This document shows positions 1 to 10,855 of a stretch of DNA of 10,855 nucleotides, in pieces. Every line of letters starts with the position of its first letter. The first letter of the stretch is position 1. Under the pieces are notes generated by a model that saw nothing but the letters and a program-made list of their open reading frames with translations, made no database searches and had not been told where the DNA came from. Both the position numbers and the translations under genes were made by a program. The DNA is from Deltaproteobacteria bacterium (GTDB lineage: Bacteria > Desulfobacterota > DSM-4660 > Desulfatiglandales > HGW-15). The stretch is from contig CP070840.1 in NCBI GenBank assembly GCA_020342025.1, forward strand, positions 2,670,926-2,681,780. Reading direction: 5' to 3'.

Positions 1-462
1 TTTGGTCATGGCCGAACTTCTCCCTATGAGATTTTGTCGGTCAAAATGGGTCCCCAGGCTCTCACGCAGGAGTCGGTTTTCCTCCCTCAAATTTCTGTGA
101 TCCATAGCGCGTTCCATAATAAGCCGCAGTTCGTCAAAATCGAGGGGCTTGGTTAGATAATCATAAGCGCCATTTTTCAGTGCCTCCACGGCGGTCTCAA
201 TGGAAGAGTAAGCGGTCATGATAATGACCGGGATGGCAGGGTTGAAGGCCTTTATTTCGTTAAGGGCCTCAAGGCCAGAAACTTTGATCATACGAATATC
301 CATTAAAATCAGATCAAAGGGCTTTTCATGGACCTTTTCTATGGCCGTGGAACCATCATCCGCCTCAAAGATGGTATATCCCCATCCCGTGAGAAGGGTC
401 CGCAGCATGGTGCGGTGGGCAGGATCATCATCCACGACGAGGACGCTATTCTCTTTTTTCAT
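1..462 (-). CDS. NtrC-family (ZraR/AtoC-like) response regulator, partial
   Basis: The 154 visible codons give a complete receiver domain and the first residues of a sigma-54 activator domain; the rest lies beyond the left edge. The receiver has the acidic pocket D11-D12-D13, phospho-acceptor D55 in LILMDIRM, T83 in IIMTAYSS and the conserved K105 in YLTKPLDF. A helical linker (about 115-140) leads to the sequence LIGRSSAM, which matches the start of the AAA+ domain in NtrC-type enhancer-binding proteins. The ATP-binding, GAFTGA and DNA-binding parts are not visible. Its start lies inside the last 17 bases of the upstream exporter gene, implying translational coupling. It is the natural partner of the kinase at 1528-3309 and the best candidate to bind the paired operators near the two sigma-54 promoters in this window. 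The family call is secure; the specific ligand is not. Confidence 0.93.
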   Translation of the reverse strand, partial: MKKENSVLVVDDDPAHRTMLRTLLTGWGYTIFEADDGSTAIEKVHEKPFDLILMDIRMIKVSGLEALNEIKAFNPAIPVIIMTAYSSIETAVEALKNGAYDYLTKPLDFDELRLIMERAMDHRNLREENRLLRESLGTHFDRQNLIGRSSAMTK

Positions 463-1426
463 CGTGCATTTCCTCATTCTGTTTCAAACAACTCTGCCCT
501 AAGTAGCCATGCACTTCCACTGTCACGTGGCTCAGTTCTGGATACTTGGAGAGCAGAGATTTGTAATGGTCGGGAGGCTTTGGGTCATGGGTTAAGAGTG
601 TAATGATTGCAGCAAAATCATGAGCGCCAACGCGCCACACGTGCAGATCTGAGACACGGTTGTCTGCCTCCGATTCGAGTGTTTTTTGAATGGATCTTGT
701 AATCCCTGCCCGGGCCTCCCCATCCAGGAGCACCTTGCTACTGTCGCGCAACAGCCCATAGGACCAACGTGCAATAATAAAGGCACCCACAATACCCATA
801 ATCGGATCCATCCACACCCAACCAAAAAATCTTCCTGTGGTTAAGGCAATAATGGCTAAGACTGACGTTAGGGCGTCTGCGATGACATGCAGATAAGCGG
901 CCCGTATATTGTGATCTTGATGGTGATTATGGTCATCCTCATGTTCCTCCCTTTCTCCATGCCCATGACGGGAACCCATGAGCAGATAGGCGCTGAGCAA
1001 ATTGACCGCCAAACCAACACAAGCAACCCATATCGCCTCATTGAACCGAATGGGTACAGGGCTAAGCAGACGTCTCCCGGACTCCCAAAGCATTATTAGG
1101 GCAATCACGCCAAGGACCACGGCGCTCGTATAACCACCCAAGACACCTACTTTTCCCGTGCCAAAGGTATAAACAGGATTGTCAGCGTTTCGACGAGCGT
1201 AGGCATAGGCAAATGCAGTGATACCCAATGCAGCAGCATGCGTTCCCATGTGCCAGCCATCTGCGAGGAGGGCCATGGAACCAAAAATCGTTCCTGCAGC
1301 GATCTCCACCACCATCATGGTCAGGGTCAGACCAATGACATAGTATGTCCTGCGTTCCGCCTCCTTTTGGCCTTCCAGATGGAATTGGTGTTCGTGCTTT
1401 AGTCTGTTCACATCATATATGTGCAT
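446..1426 (-). CDS. dmeF: DmeF-type cation diffusion facilitator metal exporter
   Basis: This 326-residue protein is an inner-membrane divalent metal/proton antiporter of the CDF family. The match to the DmeF branch (Co/Ni and related divalent metals) rests on the opening His-containing HEHQFHLEG stretch, the TM2 metal-site segment ADGWHMGTHA (D56, H59, H63), the FGTGKVG loop (about 88-94), a His/Asp-rich cytoplasmic loop at 154-172, and the TM5 site H180-x3-D184 in HVIADALTS. About six membrane helices are followed by a soluble C-terminal domain (from about 230) containing DLHVWRVG, usual for CDF proteins. The ATG start has only a weak ribosome site. It lies between the kinase and regulator genes and overlaps the regulator start by 17 bases, so it is probably co-expressed with them. 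Metal specificity cannot be read from sequence alone; zinc or another divalent ion is possible. Confidence 0.9.
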   Translation of the reverse strand: MHIYDVNRLKHEHQFHLEGQKEAERRTYYVIGLTLTMMVVEIAAGTIFGSMALLADGWHMGTHAAALGITAFAYAYARRNADNPVYTFGTGKVGVLGGYTSAVVLGVIALIMLWESGRRLLSPVPIRFNEAIWVACVGLAVNLLSAYLLMGSRHGHGEREEHEDDHNHHQDHNIRAAYLHVIADALTSVLAIIALTTGRFFGWVWMDPIMGIVGAFIIARWSYGLLRDSSKVLLDGEARAGITRSIQKTLESEADNRVSDLHVWRVGAHDFAAIITLLTHDPKPPDHYKSLLSKYPELSHVTVEVHGYLGQSCLKQNEEMHDEKRE

Positions 1427-1527: not shown

Positions 1528-3309
1528 TTACGCCCCGAAAGGTAATATGATCGTCACCGTTGTCCCCTTACCTGCCACGCTTTCAACCTTAACCTCACCT
1601 TTATGTGATTCTATGATTTTATGAACAATCGCAAGCCCCAGACCTGTCCCTGACTGCTTGGTTGTAAAGTAAGGATCAAAGACATGGACCAGATCCTCTT
1701 TGTTGATCCCCGTGCCCGTATCCGAGACCGCGATCTTGATCTGGTTCTCGTCTTGGTCTGGATGAAGTTCAACAGAAAGGGTACCCCCATCCTCCATCGC
1801 CTCAATCCCATTGAGATATAGATTGAGGAAGACCTGGTTCATTCTATCCGGATCAATGGAGACTTGTTGGATTTCAGGAGAGAGGTTCGTCCTGATACTG
1901 ATATTCTTTGCTTGCGCATCCCGCTCGATCATCTTCAGGGAATGCTGAATCACGGTCTGGATGGAAGTGGGTTGCTTCCGAACACTCATGGGCCTGGCAA
2001 ATTCCAAGAGTTGACCGATGACCCTGTTCAACCTTTCCACCTCCTGCACCATGATTTCCGCTGTCTTCTGATCTTCAGGTACGTCCCTGTATCTTTCCCT
2101 GAAGTACGTGGCAAAGCCCTTGATGGAGCTGAGCGGATTTCTGATTTCATGGGCGATGCCTGCCGCAAGCCTTCCCAGGGAAGCCAGGCGCTGCGTCCTT
2201 TCAACCTCTCTTTTGAGTTCTTGAATCTCTGTCAAATCCCTGAAAAGGATGATGTGTCCCATTGAAGTGCCATCATCGTCTTCCAGCCTGGACACACTCA
2301 CATCCATGGGAATCCTTCTCCCATTTGCAACAGGGCATTCAATCTCCTTTTCGATGACCTCTTCTTCGGTTTCAAGTTCTCCGGTAAGGCACTCTAATTG
2401 CCTGGGGAGAATTTCATCGGCCTTTTTACCAAGCACCTCGTGAGCCCTAACTTGAAGGACCCACTCAGCCGTCTGGTTAAAGGAGACAATCCTCTTATCC
2501 GTATCAATGGCCAGAAGCCCAATGGGCATATTCTCTACCACATTATCAGAAAAGGCCTTGATCCGGGTGAGAGAAGTCTTTGCTGATCTGTATGCCTGTG
2601 CCAGAAAAAGGGACACGATGCCCGCGAACCCGATCAGGAGAAGGATAAGCGCCATGATGACCGTATGACGTGTATCCGCCTTTCTGGCCGCTTCAATGGG
2701 TCCCATGTCCAAACCGACAAAGATGATGTGCCCTGTGAAAGATTCATTGCTTTCAGGATTCATACCCGGCCCGCGAAACATATTGGGCATCATTCTCATC
2801 ATTCTTCTGTGATGTTCTGGGAAACGTCCCCGAGCGGGCGAGAACCGCCGAAAAACCTCGAAAGTACTGGCTCCATTGGGATCGGAGACCTGACGCCAAT
2901 GGACCTTTTCAGAGCGCGAAATGCCGTCAAGGTTCAGGTCTCTGCCGTGAATTTTCCCTATTTCAGCCGGATCATTGTGAGCAAGTACAGTTCCTTGGGT
3001 ATCGGTTACAATCAGGTATACGATGTCGGTTTGCTGCGCTGTCTCTGTTAGCAGGTTTTGGAGCTGAAACCCGCCCTCTTGCATGCCCATCATCCCCATC
3101 ATCCCTGTCCTGGTTCCCGCTTCAAAAGACCTTATGAGGGCAGCGCCCTTTTCCAAGAGCAGTTCGGTGGCGAATTCCTTTTCTCGGGCGATGTTTTGAA
3201 TCGTTATGAAAAGGAAGATGGGCACCAGAACGATCACGGCACCCAAAATGATCCATGGCGGTATACGAAACCACCCTTTCTTTTCAATTTTATCTTTTCT
3301 CATGAGCAT
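1528..3309 (-). CDS. ZraS/NtrB-like membrane sensor histidine kinase with PAS domain
   Basis: With the ATG at 3309 this is 593 residues. A short cytoplasmic tail precedes TM1 (about 18-38), then a periplasmic sensor domain of about 180 residues, TM2 (about 217-238), a PAS domain (about 255-365), a HisKA dimerisation helix with H387 in GIAHEIRNPLSS, and an HATPase_c domain with an N box (NQVFLNLYLNGIEAM), G1 (DTGTGI), F box (FDPYFTTK) and G2 (GTGLGLAIV). It should autophosphorylate and pass phosphate to the regulator at 1-462. The sensor domain has Met-rich patches near 69-76 (GMMGMMGM) and 168-183 (RRMMRMMPNMFRGPGM) and a His pair just before the second, which may bind metal. Start choice is uncertain: a TTG at 3333 and an ATG at 3303 are also in frame and none has a clear ribosome site. 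Opposite orientation to the electron-transfer genes, sharing their control region. Confidence 0.92.
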   Translation of the reverse strand: MLMRKDKIEKKGWFRIPPWIILGAVIVLVPIFLFITIQNIAREKEFATELLLEKGAALIRSFEAGTRTGMMGMMGMQEGGFQLQNLLTETAQQTDIVYLIVTDTQGTVLAHNDPAEIGKIHGRDLNLDGISRSEKVHWRQVSDPNGASTFEVFRRFSPARGRFPEHHRRMMRMMPNMFRGPGMNPESNESFTGHIIFVGLDMGPIEAARKADTRHTVIMALILLLIGFAGIVSLFLAQAYRSAKTSLTRIKAFSDNVVENMPIGLLAIDTDKRIVSFNQTAEWVLQVRAHEVLGKKADEILPRQLECLTGELETEEEVIEKEIECPVANGRRIPMDVSVSRLEDDDGTSMGHIILFRDLTEIQELKREVERTQRLASLGRLAAGIAHEIRNPLSSIKGFATYFRERYRDVPEDQKTAEIMVQEVERLNRVIGQLLEFARPMSVRKQPTSIQTVIQHSLKMIERDAQAKNISIRTNLSPEIQQVSIDPDRMNQVFLNLYLNGIEAMEDGGTLSVELHPDQDENQIKIAVSDTGTGINKEDLVHVFDPYFTTKQSGTGLGLAIVHKIIESHKGEVKVESVAGKGTTVTIILPFGA

Positions 3310-3442
3310 CTTTTTAAGCAAAAGGAATACCAAAAAGGGTTACGAGCCTGAGGCTTGAGAATAAACGCTTAAAATTACACCCTAAATGCCTCGCCCAGCC
3401 ATGTCCCACCAACTTAATGGATCATGGATGCGACAGGGATTT

Positions 3443-3457
3443 GGATACTTATTACCC
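3443..3457. promoter_or_regulatory. Operator copy 1 (GGATAYTTWTTAYCC), distal site of first pair
   Basis: The site reads GGATACTTATTACCC: a perfect left half GGATA and a right half one base from TATCC. It matches the copy at 3486 in 13 of 15 positions and the copy at 10673 in 13 of 15. Its position upstream of a sigma-54 promoter fits an enhancer for an NtrC-type activator, most likely the regulator encoded at 1-462. Binding itself is inferred. Confidence 0.65.
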
Positions 3458-3485
3458 ACCTGTATACCTTGCCTCCCTAAAATAT

Positions 3486-3500
3486 GGATATTTATTATCC
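3486..3500. promoter_or_regulatory. Operator copy 2 (GGATAYTTWTTAYCC), proximal site of first pair
   Basis: The site reads GGATATTTATTATCC, with perfect inverted half sites GGATA and TATCC around a 5-bp centre. It starts exactly 43 bp after copy 1, about four helical turns, placing both on nearly the same DNA face. It is 112 bp from the start of the sigma-54 promoter at 3598. It also lies about 180 bp upstream of the kinase gene, so it could control both directions. Confidence 0.68.
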
Positions 3501-3597
3501 GCTTTTCAAGCAGCTGCGTCAGAAAAACCAGAATCCTAAGGCCAGATAATTCTGAAAAACATTTAATATTAGGTAGTTATGCGTGATGCCGAAGTTT

Positions 3598-3613
3598 TGG
3601 CACGCTCATTGCT
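3598..3613 (+). promoter_or_regulatory. Sigma-54 (RpoN) promoter of the electron-transfer cluster
   Basis: TGGCACGCTCATTGCT matches the sigma-54 consensus TGGCACRNNNNTTGCW at every specified position. The invariant GG (3599-3600) and GC (3611-3612) are separated by exactly 10 bases. Transcription should start near 3624, leaving a leader of about 48 nt before the ATG at 3672. Such promoters need an ATP-dependent activator, which fits the NtrC-type regulator in this window. Confidence 0.9.
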
Positions 3614-3658
3614 CGATACTTGGGGGCAAGTTCAAAGATCGTGCATAGATAAGAATCA

Positions 3659-3664
3659 AGGAGG
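3659..3664 (+). promoter_or_regulatory. Strong ribosome binding site of the PepSY-like gene
   Basis: AGGAGG lies 7 bases before the ATG at 3672 and decides that start over upstream in-frame codons beginning at 3579. Those upstream codons lie before or across the sigma-54 promoter, so they cannot be translated from its transcript. Confidence 0.9.
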
Positions 3665-3671
3665 GATTCAA

Positions 3672-4040
3672 ATGAAAAGGTATATGGGATTGATTATCGC
3701 TGGTGTTCTGTTTTTGGTCATTGCAGGATTCGGTTATAGCCATTTTGCTGGCCCGAGTCATGCTTATGCGTGTGGTTGGGGCAAGTCTGGTGGAGACGAT
3801 TATGTCCCACAAAGGCGTGGGCCGACAACGGGCTCACTGTACAATAAGCCTTTTCTGACAAAAGAGCAGGCCTATGACGTGGTGGATAATCACGTAAGGA
3901 AATTAAATCCTGCACTAAGAATTGGCCAGATCAATGACGAGGGCAGCTATTACCAGGCAGAAATCCTCGCTGAGAGCGGCGAGGTTGTTCAACGCTTAGG
4001 TGTGGACAAGGAATCAGGTCAAATCATGCTCTTAAATTGA
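3672..4040 (+). CDS. Small exported PepSY-like protein
   Basis: This 122-residue protein opens with a signal sequence: KR, then a hydrophobic stretch (about 5-22), ending in SHAYA before Cys34. A signal peptidase I cut after AYA would leave a mature protein of about 89 residues starting CGWGKSGG; the Cys is not in a canonical lipobox. From about residue 60 the pattern LTKEQAYDVVDNHV ... YYQAEI ... VDKESGQIMLL resembles a single PepSY-like domain (helix followed by strands ending in a D-x-x-[ST]-G turn). It is the first gene after the sigma-54 promoter and has the best ribosome site in the window, so it is probably abundant when the regulator is active. Its genomic position mirrors zraP beside zraSR in enterobacteria, but the sequence is not ZraP-like. 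Function unknown; a periplasmic accessory or metal-buffering role is a guess. Confidence 0.85.
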   Translation: MKRYMGLIIAGVLFLVIAGFGYSHFAGPSHAYACGWGKSGGDDYVPQRRGPTTGSLYNKPFLTKEQAYDVVDNHVRKLNPALRIGQINDEGSYYQAEILAESGEVVQRLGVDKESGQIMLLN

Positions 4041-4082
4041 CCCATCGGGGAATTGTCACCTGGATCACATTTTTAGAAATAT

Positions 4083-4086
4083 GAGG
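4083..4086 (+). promoter_or_regulatory. Ribosome binding site supporting the ATG at 4093
   Basis: GAGG lies 6 bases before the ATG at 4093. The in-frame ATG at 4081 has no purine-rich site ahead of it, and this GAGG would lie inside its coding sequence, so 4093 is preferred. Confidence 0.65.
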
Positions 4087-4092
4087 AAACAC

Positions 4093-4563
4093 ATGCGCAT
4101 TTCCAAAAAAATTTTGGACCTTATTTATCTCACTCTCTTGGTCCTGATTGTCATAGGTTTACCTTTAGGCATAGAGTTCTACGATAGCCGAGTGTGGCAG
4201 AAAAAGATACCCTCTGGAGCCAAGGAATTTCTTCTTACCGGACACGCCCAAAAAGGTTGGATTAGGGGTGATGTCCGTGCCTTTGATGTCGTCTCGCTCT
4301 GGGCAGAAAATAGACCCATTGAGAAGCCTGTCATAGAGGTCTCCAAAGGAGATCTGGTTGTGTTGAAGCTCAGGAGCAGTGATGTGATACATGGTTTTAG
4401 CCTGAAAGATTTCGGCGTCTTTATAACGGATGGGATCCAACCTGGAAAAACCATGATGGTTTCCTTCAGGGCAGACAGGGTGGGCACGTTTACCTTTTCA
4501 TGCAATGCCATCTGCGGTGAAAACCACCAAAACATGCAGGGCACTCTGGTGGTTGGGGCTTAA
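4093..4563 (+). CDS. Membrane-anchored CuA protein, cytochrome oxidase subunit II-like
   Basis: This 156-residue protein has one N-terminal membrane helix (about 6-27) and a periplasmic cupredoxin domain. All the side-chain ligands of a binuclear CuA centre are present: H100 in VIHGF, then C137-x3-C141-x3-H145-x2-M148 in the segment CNAICGENHQNM. CuA is a one-electron carrier that takes electrons from a cytochrome c or cupredoxin and passes them to a haem-copper oxidase or NosZ-type site. The residue two after the first Cys is Ala, where oxidase subunit II has Glu and nitrous oxide reductase has Trp. It is shorter than a typical subunit II and has one helix rather than two; no subunit I gene is in the window. 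It starts 52 bp after the PepSY-like gene and ends 12 bp before the cytochrome gene, so it is probably co-transcribed with both. Confidence 0.88.
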   Translation: MRISKKILDLIYLTLLVLIVIGLPLGIEFYDSRVWQKKIPSGAKEFLLTGHAQKGWIRGDVRAFDVVSLWAENRPIEKPVIEVSKGDLVVLKLRSSDVIHGFSLKDFGVFITDGIQPGKTMMVSFRADRVGTFTFSCNAICGENHQNMQGTLVVGA

Positions 4564-4575
4564 TCGATACGAGTC

Positions 4576-6273
4576 ATGCAAATGCGTAGAAAAAAGTCCC
4601 TTTTCATTGCCCTCGCATCAATCTTGATTGTCTCGGTGATCACATACCTTCAAGAAAAAGGGTCGGCTCAGACATGGTCGGGGGCAGCCCAGGGCAAAAG
4701 GATTCACGGCCGCGTCATCTCCAGGTACGGCCCAGTGAAAAATGCGAGGGTGAGAGTCGCGGGAGATGAAAGTTACGCACTCACCAACACACGGGGGGAA
4801 TTTGTTTTTCCAACGGATCACCTCTCTGAAGCCAGGATTCTGGTCACGGCCGGCAAAGAAGGCTGGTTCAACAACGGGCAGATAGGTGCAGGTTCGGGCC
4901 TCATAAGGGATATCTTTCTTAACCCAGTTTATCTGAACGATCGCTCCGATTACCGTTTTATTTCACCGGTTACCTGTTCCAGATGTCATGCAAAACTGAC
5001 GCGTTACTGGGATCAGTCCAAAATGGCCCACACCTCCTCCAATCCCAAGGTGCAGGATATGTTTTATGGGACCGATGCGTATAATCGTCCGGGCATCGGA
5101 CCCGGGTTTAGGCTGGATAATCCGAGAAGTAATGGAAACTGTATCACCTGCCACGCCCCTTCGTTTGCTGTATCCAGCCCCTGGTCTCAGGATTTAAAGG
5201 GCGCTCTGCAGTCTCCTTTAACAGAGTGGGATGGAATTAGCTGCGAATACTGCCACAAGGTGCGTAAGGTTTTCCCCGACAAGACCAAGCCGAGTGGCTA
5301 CAGTGCGCTTTTGGAAAGACAATCCGCATATTCGGGTTCATCTATCCTGGTCTTTGGTCCCTACGACGATGTGGTGGTTCCGCCCATGGCTGCGTCCTAT
5401 AATCCCGTCTATGATAAAGCTGAGTTTTGCTCCACATGTCATAGTCATCGCAAAAAGCTCGGAAAGGGCAAGACATGGGACCGCAGAAAAGTCTATAGCG
5501 ATGCAGAGTGGAGGGGATTTGGCCTTGAAGATGACACGTTCCTGCCCATCCAGACAACTTATCAGGAATTCAAACTCTGGCAGGAACAGCTCTCTCCAGA
5601 TGACCCGAACAAAGGCAAAACGTGTCAGGAGTGCCACATGAGCTGGCGCAAGGAGATGTTGCCTTATGACAACTATGTGGTGGACGGGATGGCGAGGAAC
5701 ATGTGGGGCACATACCGCTCAGCCCAAAACATCCGCCCCCATCATTTTGACGGGGGAACAGAGACCCAGCTCAAAACGGCCCTATCCATGGAACTGGAAG
5801 GGGAGATAGAAGGCAAAAAATTAAATGTTGATGTCTACATAACGAACACGAACGGGGGTCATTGGGTGCCAACGGGAGAGACCATGCGAAGCGTAATGCT
5901 ACTTCTTCGAGTCTTTGACTCAAGAGGCAAGCCTCTTAAAATGATAAATGGGAGCGTACTTCCCGACTGGACGGGAAGGGGAGACCTTGAAGCAGGGAAT
6001 TATGCGGATCTACCGGGAGCGGTCTTCGCGAGGGTCCTCCAAGACGAGGAAGGTAACATCCATGTGCCTTTCTGGCAGGCGACACGCATTGCCTCAGACA
6101 CCCGCATCAGGCAAAAGAGTACATCGACCTTGAAATGGGTATTTGCTCTGGAGGATCCTGAAGATGAACCTACCGTGGAGGCCAAGCTCATCTATCGACC
6201 AGTTATCAGACCGTGGGCAGAGAAAAAGAAATGGCATGTGCAGGATATCTTAATCGTTAGCAAGGTCTGGTGA
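4576..6273 (+). CDS. Exported pentahaem cytochrome c with N-terminal carboxypeptidase-regulatory-like domain
   Basis: This 565-residue protein begins with a signal sequence or anchor (basic MQMRRKK, hydrophobic about 8-24). Residues about 42-115 look like a carboxypeptidase-regulatory-like beta-sandwich (HGRVISRYGPVKNARVRV ... TNTRGEF). Five covalent haem motifs follow: CSRCH (134-138), CITCH (189-193), CEYCH (223-227), CSTCH (285-289) and CQECH (350-354). The C-terminal part (about 400-565) is a haem-free beta-rich domain containing GGHWVPTGETMR, a GHxxPTG-like signature I know from the C-terminal region of other multihaem cytochromes. It should act in the periplasm or at the cell surface as an electron carrier or reductase; there is no family match precise enough to name a substrate. 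It sits between a CuA protein and a cupredoxin, implying electron exchange with copper sites. A second ATG two codons later (4582) is equally possible. Confidence 0.9.
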   Translation: MQMRRKKSLFIALASILIVSVITYLQEKGSAQTWSGAAQGKRIHGRVISRYGPVKNARVRVAGDESYALTNTRGEFVFPTDHLSEARILVTAGKEGWFNNGQIGAGSGLIRDIFLNPVYLNDRSDYRFISPVTCSRCHAKLTRYWDQSKMAHTSSNPKVQDMFYGTDAYNRPGIGPGFRLDNPRSNGNCITCHAPSFAVSSPWSQDLKGALQSPLTEWDGISCEYCHKVRKVFPDKTKPSGYSALLERQSAYSGSSILVFGPYDDVVVPPMAASYNPVYDKAEFCSTCHSHRKKLGKGKTWDRRKVYSDAEWRGFGLEDDTFLPIQTTYQEFKLWQEQLSPDDPNKGKTCQECHMSWRKEMLPYDNYVVDGMARNMWGTYRSAQNIRPHHFDGGTETQLKTALSMELEGEIEGKKLNVDVYITNTNGGHWVPTGETMRSVMLLLRVFDSRGKPLKMINGSVLPDWTGRGDLEAGNYADLPGAVFARVLQDEEGNIHVPFWQATRIASDTRIRQKSTSTLKWVFALEDPEDEPTVEAKLIYRPVIRPWAEKKKWHVQDILIVSKVW

Positions 6274-6276
6274 TTT

Positions 6277-6284
6277 GAGGAGGG
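6277..6284 (+). promoter_or_regulatory. Strong ribosome binding site for a TTG start
   Basis: GAGGAGGG lies 7 bases before the TTG at 6292. This strong site, plus the signal peptide that begins right there, supports the unusual TTG start of the cupredoxin gene. Confidence 0.85.
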
Positions 6285-6291
6285 ATACGAA

Positions 6292-6957
6292 TTGAGAAGA
6301 TATATAGCTATCACGGCTCTGAGCCTGTTATTTCTGGTTTTGTATTTGCCGCGGTATGCGTCCGCCGGAAACATTTCCGGTAACGTCAAAGTAAAGGGGT
6401 TACGTTCCCCAGCTAACGTGCTGGTATATGTGACCAAGGCAGCTCCCGTTTCCGTTGATGTCTCGGCTGCCAAATTTGACATGGATCAGCGTAATTTGAC
6501 TTTCATTCCACACATCTTACCCCTTTTAGTTGGCTCAAGTGTTCAATTTCCCAACAATGATAAGGTGGCTCACAATGTTTTTTCCCTTTCGAGGACCAAG
6601 ACATTTAATTTGGGCAGTTATAAACCGGGCGCGAGTAAAACTGTAGTGTTCGACAAGCCCGGCATTGTGGAACTCCGTTGTGACGTTCACGCGGAAATGG
6701 CAGCCTACATTCTGGTGATGAAAAATCCATATTGGGCCATAACGGACGAGAAGGGTCAATTTCGAATTCCCGATACGGAATACTTGGAAAGGCACAGTAT
6801 AAAAGGGATAAAAGAACTTCCGCCTGGCGAGTATTCCCTAAAGACTTGGCATGAAAAGCTGAAAAGCCAGAAGATAGCCGTTGATGTACCAGAAAGTGGA
6901 AAGGTTTCCATTCAATTAGATCTCACCCGGGGTGCCCCGAGTACCTTATATAAATAA
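6292..6957 (+). CDS. Exported plastocyanin/azurin-like cupredoxin
   Basis: This 221-residue protein starts at a TTG with a strong ribosome site. The signal peptide (MRRYIAITALSLLFL..., cleaved after about YASA, residue 25) is followed by a cupredoxin fold. The blue-copper ligand set is visible: H94 in VAHNVFS, then C130, H133 and M136 in CDVHAEM. The pattern CxxHxxM after a GIVELRC strand is that of the periplasmic cupredoxins often labelled methylamine utilisation-like. The C-terminal 80 residues (about 145-221, ITDEKGQFRIPD ... LPPGEYSLKTWHEKL) resemble a second beta-sandwich module of the carboxypeptidase-regulatory type. It should carry single electrons in the periplasm between the cytochrome upstream (18 bp away) and a membrane partner. 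Type 1 copper binding is inferred from the ligands. Confidence 0.87.
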   Translation: MRRYIAITALSLLFLVLYLPRYASAGNISGNVKVKGLRSPANVLVYVTKAAPVSVDVSAAKFDMDQRNLTFIPHILPLLVGSSVQFPNNDKVAHNVFSLSRTKTFNLGSYKPGASKTVVFDKPGIVELRCDVHAEMAAYILVMKNPYWAITDEKGQFRIPDTEYLERHSIKGIKELPPGEYSLKTWHEKLKSQKIAVDVPESGKVSIQLDLTRGAPSTLYK

Positions 6958-6983
6958 ACAATTTCCACGCATCGGGTTCATAT

Positions 6984-7631
6984 ATGGCGATAGCAAAGCA
7001 AAAAGTTCAAGCGATGTATCAATCGGGTGCAAAGCATTACGATTTCACCACGATTTTATTTAGACTTATCGGCTTACGAATGAAAACTTACCGTTCAGTG
7101 GCTATAAAAAAGTTGTCTCTTCAACGTGGCGATTTTGTCATAGAGCTTGGCTGTGGTACGGGTCTAAACTTCCCTTTGCTTATGGAACAATTAGGACCGG
7201 CGGGTCGACTGATAGGCGTTGATTTAACACCAGGAATGCTTGACCTTGCACGGGCGAGGGTCAAGAGATCTGGCTGGAAAAACGTGGAACTGGCAAAGTC
7301 AGATATAGCTACCTATTATTTTCCAGAGGGAGTAAACGGTGTGCTTGCCACAGGCGTCTTTGGCTACGTACCCCAATATGACTATGTGATCAAAGAAGCC
7401 TCGAAGTCCCTCGTACCCGGTGGTCACCTAGCAATACTTGATGGCAAGCAGCCCGAAAACTTACCTTCATGGTTGTTCAAAATCGTGTTGAAACTCGGAG
7501 GGCCATTCGTATATACCCCTGAGTATTTCAATGTTCGCCCTTGGGAATCAGTAAAAAGGTATTTTAGAGAGACTTCGTTTGAAACAAGATATGGAGGAAT
7601 GATTTATATTTTATCCGGAACTGCTCCATAA
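6984..7631 (+). CDS. Class I SAM-dependent methyltransferase
   Basis: This 215-residue cytoplasmic protein has the Rossmann-type methyltransferase signature: motif I VIELGCGTG (about 52-60), the acidic residue D80 in LIGVDLT at the end of strand 2, SDIATYYF (about 106-113) as motif II, and LVPGGHLAILDGK (about 143-155) as motif III. It is nearest to UbiE/Methyltransf_11-type enzymes, but the substrate cannot be read: quinone, lipid and small-molecule substrates are all possible. No signal peptide is seen. It begins 26 bp after the cupredoxin gene without a clear ribosome site and is the only cytosolic enzyme in the cluster. It could tune a quinone for the electron-transfer chain, but that is speculative; it could equally be an unrelated passenger. 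Confidence 0.88.
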   Translation: MAIAKQKVQAMYQSGAKHYDFTTILFRLIGLRMKTYRSVAIKKLSLQRGDFVIELGCGTGLNFPLLMEQLGPAGRLIGVDLTPGMLDLARARVKRSGWKNVELAKSDIATYYFPEGVNGVLATGVFGYVPQYDYVIKEASKSLVPGGHLAILDGKQPENLPSWLFKIVLKLGGPFVYTPEYFNVRPWESVKRYFRETSFETRYGGMIYILSGTAP

Positions 7632-7930
7632 GAATGGTCTAAAGACCGCATGAGCTTGGACTACTAAAATGCGTTACGCGCCTTTACCAGGCTGTTATGA
7701 GGGGCCTTCGTCTACCCTGGCCTTCTACCCCGTTAGAGTGATGCTCCTCCATTTATGGTGCGGTTGGCGAGATCTTAAGTCCCAACGAGATTTGGAGAAA
7801 GTCTCGTGTACATTCTCTGACGGGCTCAATGGTGCCCGACTAAAGATTTTGGTAAACGGATCTGAGGAGGATCATTGGCATCATCCGCGCATCAATATTC
7901 AAATTGCAATTCTCACTGTAGCGAGAGTGG
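7632..7930. other. Gap of about 300 bp with several short inverted repeats, no convincing gene
   Basis: No credible coding sequence is seen here. Small inverted repeats occur in series: GGTC-TAAA-GACC at 7636-7647 just after the methyltransferase stop, GTTGG/CCAAC at 7763-7786, CGAGA/TCTCG at 7786-7806 (extendable with one bulge), CGGGC/GCCCG at 7821-7838, and GGATcAT/ATcATCC near 7869-7886. None has a following T-run, so none is a classical terminator. There is also a near-repeat of GGCCTTC(gtc)TACCC at about 7703-7730. It may be a structured leader for the thioredoxin gene, a decayed gene, or chance. Confidence 0.4.
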
Positions 7931-8554
7931 ATGGCATACGAATTCCGGGAGACGATGAGGAAAAAACACGTTTCATATATAACAATTATGGGCTTTGTTG
8001 TGATCTCGATCACCATTGTGCTGCTTGCCCTTCGTGAGAGAGGGGATACACCCTCAACACCCTCAGATTTCGCTGGCAACAAATTAGAGCGACTTTTCCG
8101 TGATATGGGTATCGTAAAAGTTGCCCATGTTACAGACCCGGTAGAGATCGCCCTTAAAGATCTTAATGGTAACATGGTGAGACTCTCTGATTTTAGGGGA
8201 AAAGTGGTCTTTCTTAATTTCTGGGCCACTTGGTGCAGCCCCTGCCGTATTGAGATGCCCTCCATGGAGAGATTGCACAAAAAGCTCAAAGACAGGGGTC
8301 TTGTGATGTTGGCCATAAACCTGGAAGAGCCTGTATCCCTGGTGAGAGCGTTCTTCGAGGAATATAAGTTGAGTTTCACGGCCCTGTTGGACACGAAAGG
8401 AGAAGTGGGAGTCATGTTTGGAATTAGCGCCCTCCCCACAACTTTTATCATATACGAGGATGGACGGATAATAGGCGCTGCTATGGGAGCCCGGGATTGG
8501 TACAGTGAAAAAGCGCTCGCCCTGTTTGAATATTTGATAGATAGAGGCAAATGA
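7931..8554 (+). CDS. Membrane-anchored TlpA/ResA-like thioredoxin
   Basis: This 207-residue protein has an N-terminal membrane anchor (about 15-34) and a periplasmic thioredoxin fold. The active site is W101-C102-S-P-C105 in FWATWCSPCRIEMP, and the cis-proline loop is ISALPTTF (P169). The DFRGKVVFLNF strand before it is typical of the AhpC/TSA-Redoxin-type TlpA family. Such proteins keep periplasmic Cys pairs reduced, for example apocytochrome CxxCH motifs before haem attachment or the two Cys of CuA before copper loading. Both kinds of client are encoded next door, so the context suits a maturation role. An ATG at 7955 (residue 9, MRKKHVSY) gives a more typical anchor start and is a real alternative; neither has a strong ribosome site. 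It is preceded by a gap of about 300 bp, so it may have its own promoter. Confidence 0.9.
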   Translation: MAYEFRETMRKKHVSYITIMGFVVISITIVLLALRERGDTPSTPSDFAGNKLERLFRDMGIVKVAHVTDPVEIALKDLNGNMVRLSDFRGKVVFLNFWATWCSPCRIEMPSMERLHKKLKDRGLVMLAINLEEPVSLVRAFFEEYKLSFTALLDTKGEVGVMFGISALPTTFIIYEDGRIIGAAMGARDWYSEKALALFEYLIDRGK

Positions 8555-8642
8555 GACAATCTAGAGGGTAGGGATTGAAGCGTTGGAGAGGCATACGCGG
8601 TATAGAGTAAAGGGAGGCGACTCTCGGCAATGAGGTATAAAG

Positions 8643-10574
8643 GTGATGAAAAGAGGGGGAATTTTAATACTTATTCTTTTTTCTCTGGCAGTGGCGGTGG
8701 CAGTGCCCCTGCTCGTTCAAATGATACCCCTCGAGACCCGAACCCACCGTATTGTCTTGGAGGCCAAGAAATTTGGCTATTCGCCTTCCAGGATTTTGGT
8801 GAACAAGGGCGATACCATCGTTCTGAAACCCACGTCACTTGACGTCACGCACGGATTTCTTCTTGATGGATATCCGGTAGAGTTTATCATCAAACAGCAG
8901 GGCATTTCATACCTGAAATATACCTGGGAAGATGATGAGGGAAAGCTTCACACGGACTGGGACAAGGTCTCTGAAATCGAATTTGCTGCCGATAAGTCGG
9001 GGAAATTCACCTTCCGTTGCAATCAAACGTGCGGGAATCTTCATCCTTTCATGACGGGGGAATTAATTGTTAGACCCAATACCTCCTATCACCTCTTCGT
9101 TTCATTATCCATTTGGCTAACACTAACCCTCCTTTTCATGTTCAGAACCAACACCAGATTGGGTTTTGCACGTTTCACGCGAATTAATATCCTGGACCGG
9201 CTGCCTTGGGTGAAGCGTATCGTCAGGCTACGCAGTTTTCAGTTTTTGGTGATCTTCCCCAATTTTGTTTTTTTCTATTTGTTCATACTCAGCGCCCTTT
9301 GGGGAAGCCCTGTGGGCAATCGCAATATCAGTATTATTCTCGTATGGATCGCATGGTGGTTTGCCCTAAAAGCTTTCCTGGTACCCTTTGGCGGGAGGGT
9401 CTGGTGTCTGGTTTGTCCTCTTCCCGCACCCGCAGAATGGCTAAACCGCAAGAGCCTGACCGCCGTCAAGTACATTGAAAAACCCTTGAGGGGACTGCAT
9501 CACCGATTTATTGGTTTTCAAAAGGACTGGCCTAAACTGTTGAGTAATATCTGGCTTCAGAATGTCCTCGTCATGGCCCTGATCTCTCTTGCAATCATTT
9601 GGCTTACTCGTCCCATCGCAACAGCCTTTTTATTCCTGGTGATCCTCCTACTCACCTTTGTCCTCGCCCTGATCTATCGTCAAAGGGTATTTTGCTTGTA
9701 TTTGTGTCCTGTGGGGGGGTTTTTGGGACCCTATTCTATGGCTGCCATGACAGAGGTTCGCGCCATAGATCCAGAGGTCTGCAAAAAACACAAAGAGAAA
9801 TGTTGCTACACGGGCGGAACGGATGGCTGGGCTTGCCCCTGGAATCGCTATGTGGGAAACATGGACCGGAACAATTATTGCGGACTCTGTACCGAGTGCA
9901 TCAAGAGCTGCCCCAAAGACAATGTGGGCATCTTCCTTAGGCCCTTTGGCTCAGACCGAACTCTTCAAGGCTATGATGAGGTCTTCAATGTGATCATCAT
10001 GCTGGTGGTGGCCATCGCCTTTATCATTACCATGCTAGGTCCATGGGGAGTGATAAAGCAGGCGGCCAATGTAACCGAAAGCAGGCAAATTATTCCTTTT
10101 CTTGTATACCTTGTCTCCATATGGGGCTCAGCCCTTTTGATCGTTCCAGGGCTCTTTGCACTCACTGCGAAAGCGGCCAACCGCCTTGCCGACAAGCAGG
10201 TAAATGATAGCACAATGATTTTACGCCTAGCCTATATCCTGGTTCCCATAGGAATCTTTAGCTGGATCGCCTTCAGCCTTCCTCCGGTCATGGTCAACTA
10301 CAACTATATTCTCGCGGTCTTATCTGATCCCCTTGGATTGGGATGGGACATTTTTGGCACTGCAAACTATCCTTTTCGGCCTTTTTTGGCTGAATGGATA
10401 CCTGTCATCCTGGGGATTATTGTATTGGCAGGGCTTTATTTTGGCCTGAGCCGAGGATACTTGGCACTTAAAGATCTGTTTCTAGATCCTGTCTTGAGGG
10501 TCAGGGCCATGGTCCTTCCCTCGTTATTTGCCCTTCTCGTTGTCAATCTATTGTTGAGACTCTTCCTGGGCTGA
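8643..10574 (+). CDS. CuA cupredoxin fused to NapH/NosR-type membrane polyferredoxin
   Basis: This protein of 643 residues joins two electron-transfer modules. After an N-terminal helix (about 6-26), residues about 35-145 form a CuA domain with H70 (VTHGF), C126, C130, H134 and M137 (CNQTCGNLHPFM). A helix follows at about 150-168, then a multi-helix membrane region of the kind seen in NapH, NosR and CcoG. It has CLVCP (C255, C258), CLYLCP (C351, C355), and a full ferredoxin motif C413-x2-C416-x2-C419-x3-C423-P; extra Cys at 380, 387, 388 and 398 may complete a second cluster. Four or more further helices lie in 440-643. It could move electrons from the membrane or cytosolic face through Fe-S clusters to a periplasmic copper centre. 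The start is GTG 8643 or the adjacent ATG 8646. I know no standard family with this domain order. Confidence 0.88.
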   Translation: MMKRGGILILILFSLAVAVAVPLLVQMIPLETRTHRIVLEAKKFGYSPSRILVNKGDTIVLKPTSLDVTHGFLLDGYPVEFIIKQQGISYLKYTWEDDEGKLHTDWDKVSEIEFAADKSGKFTFRCNQTCGNLHPFMTGELIVRPNTSYHLFVSLSIWLTLTLLFMFRTNTRLGFARFTRINILDRLPWVKRIVRLRSFQFLVIFPNFVFFYLFILSALWGSPVGNRNISIILVWIAWWFALKAFLVPFGGRVWCLVCPLPAPAEWLNRKSLTAVKYIEKPLRGLHHRFIGFQKDWPKLLSNIWLQNVLVMALISLAIIWLTRPIATAFLFLVILLLTFVLALIYRQRVFCLYLCPVGGFLGPYSMAAMTEVRAIDPEVCKKHKEKCCYTGGTDGWACPWNRYVGNMDRNNYCGLCTECIKSCPKDNVGIFLRPFGSDRTLQGYDEVFNVIIMLVVAIAFIITMLGPWGVIKQAANVTESRQIIPFLVYLVSIWGSALLIVPGLFALTAKAANRLADKQVNDSTMILRLAYILVPIGIFSWIAFSLPPVMVNYNYILAVLSDPLGLGWDIFGTANYPFRPFLAEWIPVILGIIVLAGLYFGLSRGYLALKDLFLDPVLRVRAMVLPSLFALLVVNLLLRLFLG

Positions 10575-10577
10575 ACA

Positions 10578-10611
10578 GCTGCCTGACAGAGATCTCGTCT
10601 GTAATGGCAGT
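10578..10611 (+). terminator. Terminator-like hairpin after the cluster, lacking a T-tract
   Basis: Just after the last stop codon, CTGCC (10579-10583) pairs with GGCAG (10606-10610), and inside it ACAGA (10586-10590) pairs with TCTGT (10598-10602) around a 7-nt loop. It is followed by an A-run, not a T-run, so it is at best a weak or factor-assisted terminator or a 3' mRNA-stabilising hairpin. Confidence 0.45.
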
Positions 10612-10672
10612 CAAAAAAATTACTTGCCAGGCCACCGCTCTTTAAGGCGTCCGGATCCTCTAATTTTTGGCT

Positions 10673-10687
10673 GGATACTTTTTACTC
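10673..10687. promoter_or_regulatory. Operator copy 3, distal site of second pair
   Basis: The site reads GGATACTTTTTACTC, 13 of 15 identical to the copy at 3443, with the GGATA half intact. It lies 43 bp before copy 4, the same spacing as the first pair. Confidence 0.6.
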
Positions 10688-10692
10688 GATGA

Positions 10693-10710
10693 AATCAATA
10701 TTCATTGATT
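10693..10710. repeat. Perfect inverted repeat between the second operator pair
   Basis: AATCAAT (10693-10699) and ATTGATT (10704-10710) are perfect 7-nt inverted arms around ATTC. It lies between operator copies 3 and 4 and has no counterpart between copies 1 and 2, so it may be the site of a further regulator or a chance AT-rich palindrome. Confidence 0.4.
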
Positions 10711-10715
10711 CAAAT

Positions 10716-10730
10716 GAATACTTTCTATCC
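10716..10730. promoter_or_regulatory. Operator copy 4, proximal site of second pair
   Basis: The site reads GAATACTTTCTATCC, 11 of 15 identical to the copy at 3486, with the TATCC half intact. It starts 113 bp before the sigma-54 promoter at 10829; the equivalent distance for the first pair is 112 bp. Confidence 0.55.
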
Positions 10731-10828
10731 ATTCTTCTTACGATGATTGGATGAAATTTTATCCTTAGCATCTTGATAACCCAGAATAATTATTTAATTT
10801 CAATATATTAGTTAGATTTCTGTTACTC

Positions 10829-10844
10829 TGGCACGCCAATTGCC
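10829..10844 (+). promoter_or_regulatory. Second sigma-54 (RpoN) promoter at the right edge
   Basis: TGGCACGCCAATTGCC matches TGGCACRNNNNTTGCW at all but the last, weak position. GG (10830-10831) and GC (10842-10843) are separated by exactly 10 bases. Transcription would start near the last base of the window, so its target gene lies just beyond it and is probably under the same activator as the cluster described here. Confidence 0.88.
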
Positions 10845-10855
10845 TTATAAGGATT

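What the first reader, a model, noticed from the sequence alone, without database searches (positions are those of the whole stretch)
3443..10844. Two sigma-54 promoters share an identical paired-operator layout, defining a regulon
Upstream of both sigma-54 promoters (3598 and 10829) are two copies of a 15-bp motif, consensus GGATAYTTWTTAYCC. Within each pair the copies start exactly 43 bp apart (3443/3486 and 10673/10716), and the proximal copy starts 112 or 113 bp before the promoter. The DNA between the sites does not look alike, so the shared geometry is unlikely to come from a recent duplication. The simplest reading is that the NtrC-type regulator at 1-462 binds these sites as two dimers on one face of the DNA and activates both the electron-transfer cluster and an unseen downstream gene. 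I do not recognise this operator from a described regulon.
Basis: partly seen in the sequence, partly recalled or inferred. Interest (0 to 1): 0.82.

Follow-up and report, generated by a model that had tools for sequence, protein, structure and literature searches.

The report
ZraSR-like sigma-54 metal-stress regulon
The paired DNA motif is very probably the landing site of a regulator related to the E. coli zinc-stress protein ZraR, and in sulfate-reducer relatives it stands before the regulator's own genes, metal-protection genes and a copper-protein electron-transfer operon.

Summary
In detail: two pairs of a 15-bp motif, 43 bp apart, 112 and 113 bp before two sigma-54 promoters. The motif is a dyad, GGATA-N5-TATCC. 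Exact pairs occur at 15 places in 12 of 395 genomes of the phylum, all spaced 32-33 or 41-44 bp: three or four helical turns. Ten of the 15 lie within about 500 bp of an ortholog of the window's kinase. Of 30 loci chosen by the kinase alone, 16 carry such a pair (shuffled mean 0.012). Adjacent regulators are 48-61% identical to E. coli ZraR, and E. coli zraP/zraS has a similar layout with another half-site (GAGTA, 31 bp apart). Targets in relatives include the kinase, ZraP-like proteins, YHS/HMA proteins and the window's electron-transfer operon. New relative to E. coli ZraSR: operator sequence, target set, a subclade with GTATA operators and a changed recognition helix, and kinase genes predicted to be leaderless. 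Binding, inducing metal and expression are untested. New variant of a known kind; interest 0.5.

The parts
3443..3457 (+). Distal operator GGATACTTATTACCC
   Evidence: exact match
3486..3500 (+). Proximal operator GGATATTTATTATCC, shared by divergent promoters
   Evidence: exact match; perfect dyad half-sites
3567..3579 (+). IHF-like site TATTAGGTAGTTA (7 of 9 consensus positions), 31 bp before promoter
3598..3613 (+). Sigma-54 promoter TGGCACGCTCATTGCT of the orf1 operon
   Evidence: 0 mismatches
3317..3332 (-). Sigma-54-like promoter TGGTATTCCTTTTGCT of the kinase gene; ATG 29 nt after its first base (near-leaderless)
10673..10687 (+). Distal operator GGATACTTTTTACTC
   Evidence: 1 mismatch
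10716..10730 (+). Proximal operator GAATACTTTCTATCC
   Evidence: 2 mismatches
10798..10810 (+). IHF-like site TTTCAATATATTA (8 of 9), 31 bp before promoter
10829..10844 (+). Sigma-54 promoter TGGCACGCCAATTGCC of a gene beyond the window
   Evidence: 1 mismatch
1..462 (-). ZraR-like response regulator, receiver part only (cut by window end)
   Evidence: Response_reg 5.5e-34; sister protein P0244 is 60% identical to E. coli ZraR over 451 aligned columns
446..1426 (-). DmeF-type Co/Ni cation efflux protein
   Evidence: NF033827, 438 bits, cut-off 250
1528..3303 (-). ZraS-like sensor histidine kinase
   Evidence: best NCBIfam hit ZraS, 467.5 bits, cut-off 479; sensor part 30% and kinase part 46% identical to E. 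coli ZraS
3672..4040 (+). orf1, small membrane-anchored protein with alpha-beta domain, no family
4093..4563 (+). Cupredoxin with CuA signature
   Evidence: COX2 domain; signature in 24 of 24 homologs
4576..6273 (+). Multihaem cytochrome c, 5 CxxCH
6292..6957 (+). Second cupredoxin-like protein (inferred from residues; no Pfam or NCBIfam hit)
6984..7631 (+). UbiE-type methyltransferase
7931..8554 (+). TlpA/ResA-type thioredoxin
8643..10574 (+). CuA cupredoxin fused to NapH-like polyferredoxin
   Evidence: CuA signature in all 120 listed homologs

Best explanation
The module is the operator-promoter unit of a ZraSR-like two-component regulon. A periplasmic metal or envelope signal activates the membrane kinase (1528-3303); the kinase phosphorylates the NtrC-type regulator (1-462). 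The regulator binds two GGATA-N5-TATCC dyads on one face of the DNA as two dimers (the nucleus of its hexamer). An IHF-induced bend about 31 bp before the promoter brings it to sigma-54 polymerase. It drives three promoters here: the kinase-DmeF-regulator operon (autoregulation), the copper-protein electron-transfer operon, and a downstream gene, possibly a YHS-domain protein. Shown by sequence: sites, spacing, promoters, conservation, linkage to the kinase, identity of regulator and targets. Inferred: binding, looping, IHF, the metal (Cu or another soft metal suggested by the Met-rich sensor and CuA proteins), and induction.
For: Exact pairs at 15 places in 12 of 395 genomes, all spaced 32-33 or 41-44 though 19-49 was allowed; the reversed pattern hits 2 of 395 genomes. 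10 of the 15 are within about 500 bp of a kinase ortholog. Kinase-chosen loci: 16 of 30 with a canonical pair, shuffled mean 0.012. 50 unique pairs: 45 within 1.5 bp of a multiple of 10.5 (R = 0.85; null maximum 0.47 in 20,000 uniform draws). Genome-wide sample: of 18 composites in 22 genomes, first gene kinase 3, ZraP-like 3, YHS 3, orf1 1, HMA 1, ICMT 1, PilZ 1, other 3, none called 2. Regulators 48-61% identical to ZraR; 60% for the sister of the window's regulator, nearest solved structure 1ojl ZraR. E. coli zraP/zraS: two 15-bp dyads, 31 bp apart, between divergent sigma-54 promoters (read by eye). Operator class follows the recognition helix: GGATA 17 of 17 with K/R, GTATA 9 of 10 with A/M/V. 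IHF-like sites: 27 of 66 composites versus 9.5 shuffled (maximum 17), 21 hits at -32 to -29; opposite strand 7 versus 8.4.
Against: No binding or expression data. The window's own regulator is cut before its DNA-binding domain; I rely on P0244, a sister protein (94% over the receiver). Exact pairs were found in only 12 of 395 genomes, while 382 of 395 have some kinase match at E <= 1e-40; 14 of 30 kinase-chosen loci lack a canonical pair; 13 of 22 polyferredoxin genomes lack the exact composite. Upstream of orf1 the composite is in 7 of 17 distinct loci including the window, although 13 of 17 have a sigma-54-like element. The GTATA switch is one main clade; L194 breaks the rule. The IHF-like match at 3567 is only 7 of 9, and the kinase promoter has its best match (7 of 9) at -42, not -31. 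The metal is a guess from protein composition.
Confidence: 0.88

Rival explanations
1. A different NtrC-family activator in the genome binds the pairs, and the kinase/regulator gene is just one of its targets.
For: Some Desulfobacteria carry up to 69 such activators (PMC12316311, passages); the regulator's binding domain is outside the window.
Against: 10 of 15 pair places sit at this kinase; operator class changes together with this regulator's recognition helix in one clade; E. coli ZraR has a similar layout.
Confidence: 0.07
2. The dyads are operators for a metalloregulator or repressor unrelated to sigma-54, placed near the promoters.
For: At L127, L128, L125 and L163 one site nearly abuts the kinase start, a position suited to repression.
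Against: Sites cluster 102-116 bp before -24/-12 elements and at further helical steps; IHF-like matches at a fixed place between.
Confidence: 0.03
3. The shared geometry in the window is a remnant of promoter duplication and one copy is non-functional.
For: The two promoter regions are identical in 88 of 195 aligned positions.
Against: Many of these lie in the functional elements; relatives L001 and L022 carry a composite 215 and 158 bp after the polyferredoxin gene.
Confidence: 0.02

Closest known systems
ZraPSR (HydHG) of Escherichia coli K-12
   Same: Kinase with homologous periplasmic sensor (30% over the first ~240 residues), regulator 60% identical over 451 aligned columns (P0244), two 15-bp dyads about three helical turns apart between divergent sigma-54 promoters, autoregulation, and in some relatives a divergent ZraP-like gene.
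   Different: Half-site GGATA instead of GAGTA; sites about 112 bp rather than 57-66 bp from the promoters; IHF-like site between; PAS domain in the kinase; in the window the divergent partner is an electron-transfer operon, not zraP. Up to 4 exact composites per genome. E. coli ZraR is called single-target by gSELEX, but the same paper cites 25 further targets by ChIP-seq (PMC8249747, passages) and ChIP-exo adds mgtA (PMC7657598, passages), so a larger regulon as such is not unique.
DVU3381/DVU3382/DVU3384 of Desulfovibrio vulgaris (Rajeev 2011, Kazakov 2015)
   Same: Sigma-54 response regulator of a sulfate reducer with targets DVU3382-DVU3381 and DVU3384, listed as envelope stress response (PMC4641369, passages); its predicted binding motif was tested by EMSA (PMC3333781, passages).
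   Different: The motif is shown only in a figure that is not held, so it could not be compared. Two target operons are listed there. That DVU3384 is ZraP-like and DVU3381 ZraR-like is my recall, not from a call.
IHF-assisted sigma-54 promoters (nifH, Pu type; recalled)
   Same: Activator sites upstream and an IHF site between them and the promoter.
   Different: Other activators and signals.

Membership tests
ZraSR (HydHG) two-component system | Regulator reaches NCBIfam ZraR equivalog cut-off | tested here: not met
   L119 regulator (a relative): ZraR is the best model, 587 bits, cut-off 760; window copy is truncated
ZraSR (HydHG) two-component system | Kinase reaches NCBIfam ZraS equivalog cut-off | tested here: not met
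   Window kinase 467.5 bits, cut-off 479; best of 84 models
ZraSR (HydHG) two-component system | Sensor domain homologous to ZraS | tested here: met
   30% identity over 240 columns, E 1e-26
ZraSR (HydHG) two-component system | Divergent zraP with shared operators and sigma-54 promoters | tested here: inconclusive
   Seen in relatives such as L091, L119, L129, L169; not in the window, where orf1 is divergent
ZraSR (HydHG) two-component system | E. coli-type operator GAGTM-N5-KACTC | tested here: not met
   GGATA-N5-TATCC here; E. coli GAGTAAAAATGACTC and GAGTCATTTTTACTC
ZraSR (HydHG) two-component system | Induction by zinc, lead or envelope stress | not testable with these tools
   needs expression data
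Sigma-54 enhancer-dependent promoters | GG-N10-GC at -24/-12 | tested here: met
   3598 with 0 and 10829 with 1 mismatch; minus-strand element 3332
Sigma-54 enhancer-dependent promoters | Activator with AAA+ domain, GAFTGA loop and Fis-type HTH | tested here: met
   PF00158 and HTH_8 in L119 regulator; GAFTGA in 118 of the 120 listed relatives including P0244; not visible in the window's truncated copy

The most novel reading that the evidence does not exclude
Desulfobacterota evolved their own ZraSR-type regulon in which a Met-rich sensor of copper-like metals controls, besides metal-protection genes, a copper (CuA)-dependent periplasmic electron-transfer chain. Its kinase gene is translated from a leaderless sigma-54 transcript, and one lineage has rewired the regulon from GGATA to GTATA operators through a single recognition-helix position.
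Probability: 0.35. Interest if true: 0.7.

Novelty: new variant of a known kind. Interest (0 to 1): 0.5.

Why it matters
It gives a testable operator, regulator and target list for a sigma-54 regulon in Desulfobacterota, a group with very many sigma-54 activators, and ties a copper-protein electron-transfer operon, for which my searches found no description, to metal or envelope stress. The matched change of operator and recognition helix offers a natural test of how NtrC-family regulators change specificity, and the predicted leaderless kinase mRNA would be an unusual feature for a sigma-54 promoter.

Tried and rejected
Whole-genome scan of the window's own genome: not possible, none held. 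Chance as explanation of the composite: rejected by reversed-pattern and shuffle controls. A count of 41 kinase loci (35 with a site, 25 with two or more; shuffled 8.1 and 0.9) mixes in loci that had been fetched because of the motif; I use instead the 30 loci chosen by kinase score alone. Independent-contrast test of operator class against recognition residue: not significant, because there is one main switch (2 independent pairs). IHF-like sites on the opposite strand: no excess. YHS gene as the certain third target: not supported in most relatives, so lowered to possible. orf1 fold: no PDB match at E <= 0.001; sequence search gave one hit at E 0.38. Literature: no title or abstract listed describes this operator or operon (one search listed none), but most subscription papers are not held, and the motif figure of Rajeev 2011 could not be read. 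Papers were seen as passages only (PMC7657598, PMC4641369, PMC8249747, PMC8836040, PMC12316311, PMC3333781); all others only as search listings.

Full report
Observation. The two motif pairs, their 43-bp spacing and the 112/113-bp distance to sigma-54 promoters at 3598 and 10829 are as described. The motif is best written as a dyad, GGATA-N5-TATCC. The first pair lies between divergent promoters: a minus-strand element TGGTATTCCTTTTGCT (3332-3317) faces the kinase gene, with the same two sites at -125 and -168.

Gene content. Minus strand: ZraS-like kinase (1528-3303), DmeF-type Co/Ni exporter (446-1426), ZraR-like regulator cut off by the window (1-462). Plus strand: orf1, a CuA cupredoxin, a five-haem cytochrome, a second cupredoxin-like protein, a methyltransferase, a TlpA-type thioredoxin, and a CuA cupredoxin fused to a NapH-like polyferredoxin. 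Of 71 loci found by the polyferredoxin, 18 show orf1 together with the cytochrome and polyferredoxin genes; many contigs are short.

Is the layout more than chance? A pattern of one operator, a gap and a -24/-12 element gave 18 hits in 9 of 22 genomes taken through polyferredoxin loci (22 of the 71 loci used) and 0 reversed-pattern hits. In 395 genomes drawn evenly from the phylum, the composite gave 11 places in 10 genomes against 1 reversed hit. The exact operator pair gave 15 places in 12 genomes; the reversed pattern hit 2 genomes. Although spacings of 19-49 were allowed, all 15 are 32-33 (6) or 41-44 (9). Over the loci held, 50 unique pairs within 15-80 bp had spacings 21-22 (5), 26 (1), 31-34 (16), 41-44 (27) and 77 (1); reversed sequence gave 2 pairs. 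The best period is 10.6 bp, R = 0.85 at 10.5 bp, null maximum 0.47 in 20,000 uniform draws. The pairs are therefore phased on the helix. Some of these loci had been fetched by a pattern limited to spacings of 19-49, which cannot by itself create the peaks at 32 and 42.

Which regulator? The kinase of the window was sought in the same 395 genomes. Ten of the 15 pair places lie within about 500 bp of a kinase ortholog and one more 6.7 kb away. Taking the 30 kinase loci returned (best scores, chosen without regard to the motif), 25 have at least one site (8 of 10 positions or better) and 16 have two at canonical spacing within 500 bp upstream; shuffled means are 5.9 and 0.012. Regulators beside these and other kinase loci are 48-61% identical to E. 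coli ZraR. The sister of the window's regulator, P0244 (94% identical over the receiver; from a contig of the same length, 69,119 bp, as the 98%-identical kinase P0122), is 60% identical to ZraR over 451 aligned columns, keeps GAFTGA, and its nearest solved structure is ZraR 1ojl. E. coli K-12 zraP/zraS shows a similar plan: GAGTAAAAATGACTC and GAGTCATTTTTACTC, 31 bp apart, between divergent sigma-54 promoters, 57 and 66 bp from them (distances read by eye).

Operator and protein change together. A half-site search blind to the protein assigned GGATA operators to 17 loci and GTATA operators to 10 loci with a readable regulator; several of the GGATA loci had been fetched by the motif, none of the GTATA loci. 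The residue after ITR in the recognition helix is K or R in 17 of 17 GGATA loci and A, M or V in 9 of 10 GTATA loci; the exception is L194. The nine form one supported clade, so this is one evolutionary event and the independent-pairs test is not significant. In the 9 genomes of that clade exact GTATA composites occur in 3 and GGATA composites in 0.

Targets. The 18 exact composites found in 22 whole genomes stand before kinase (3), ZraP-like (3), YHS (3), orf1 (1), HMA (1), ICMT (1), PilZ (1), other (3) and no called ORF (2). The wider set of 66 distinct composites in 45 loci has ZraP-like in 16, kinase in 10, orf1 in 6, YHS in 5, a receiver protein in 1, other in 21, and no called ORF in 7; because many of these loci were fetched through the kinase or the polyferredoxin, these proportions overstate kinase, ZraP and orf1. 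Families seen among targets include Metal_resist (PF13801), YHS, HMA, outer-membrane efflux protein, ICMT, PilZ and a trypsin-PDZ protease; some targets have no Pfam match. Many of the recognisable ones fit metal or envelope stress. Upstream of orf1, in 17 distinct loci including the window (three duplicate loci removed from the 20, three more with too little upstream DNA dropped by the script), the composite is present in 7 and a sigma-54-like element in 13; so sigma-54 control of the electron-transfer operon is common but this operator is not universal. After the polyferredoxin gene, L001 has a composite 215 bp downstream followed by a YHS gene at the contig end; within 2.5 kb, a YHS-like ORF follows in 3 of 35 loci (L002, L015, L017), not in L003, L007 or L035 although these are 72-74% identical in polyferredoxin. 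The gene beyond window position 10855 may be of this kind; it was not seen.

IHF. Between operators and promoter a directed match to WATCAANNNNTTR (consensus recalled) with at least 8 of 9 positions is found in 27 of 66 composites, against a shuffled mean of 9.5 (maximum 17), and 21 of the hits start at -32 to -29; the other strand shows 7 against 8.4. The window's plus-strand promoters have 7 of 9 and 8 of 9, both at -31; the kinase promoter has 7 of 9 at -42. Several composites come from close relatives, so the effective number is smaller.

Leaderless kinase. In 10 of 17 kinase loci with a sigma-54-like element, and in the window, an in-frame start lies 27-30 nt after the first base of the element and no Shine-Dalgarno was recognised before it, so the predicted leader is about 1-4 nt. 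In L139 a later in-frame ATG does have one. Called starts of other targets lie at least 52 nt downstream, but that calling demanded a Shine-Dalgarno; checked without that demand, 0 of 49 non-kinase targets have an in-frame ATG or GTG at 26-31 nt. That transcription starts 26 nt after the first base of the element is textbook knowledge, not measured here.

Sensor and signal. The kinase sensor keeps a Met cluster (RTGMMGMMGM in the window) in 116 of the 120 listed homologs (of 6312 hits), and both cupredoxin families keep the CuA signature (120 of 120 listed of 813 hits; 24 of 24 loci homologs). Copper or a related soft metal is a reasonable guess, but zinc, cobalt or nickel (DmeF) and general envelope stress are open.

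Verdict. A real, conserved, helically phased ZraR-type enhancer module and multi-operon regulon. Works like ZraSR; it fails the NCBIfam equivalog cut-offs and the E. coli operator sequence, so I call it ZraSR-like, a new variant. The closest prior work in sulfate reducers is DVU3381 of D. vulgaris (PMC3333781, PMC4641369, passages), whose motif I could not compare.

Noticed in passing
window 3303-3332 (minus); L143, L091, L134, L136, L093, L092, L139, L141, L157, L156: Kinase start codon only 27-30 nt after the first base of its sigma-54-like element, no Shine-Dalgarno: predicted leaderless mRNA; 0 of 49 non-kinase targets show this.
   Followed up: partly
L174, L176-L182, L188: Clade whose operators read GTATA-N5-TATAC with A, M or V in place of K/R in the recognition helix.
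   Followed up: partly
window 446-1426 (minus): DmeF-type Co/Ni exporter gene lies between kinase and regulator genes; in the relatives where both were found, kinase and regulator are adjacent or within about 200 bp.
   Followed up: no
L008, L012, L013, L019, L024, L038: Apparently paralogous short operon of CuA cupredoxin plus polyferredoxin without the cytochrome nearby (some contigs are short).
   Followed up: no
L101 2413-2987 (minus): A composite stands before a short receiver-only protein (121 aa), 61% identical to the window's regulator receiver.
   Followed up: no
L163, L127, L128, L125: Proximal site almost abuts the kinase start, so in these genomes the pair may serve only the divergent gene or repress the kinase.
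   Followed up: no
window 3672-4040: orf1 has no Pfam or NCBIfam match; AlphaFold model gives a TM helix plus a confident alpha-beta domain, no PDB match at E <= 0.001.
   Followed up: partly
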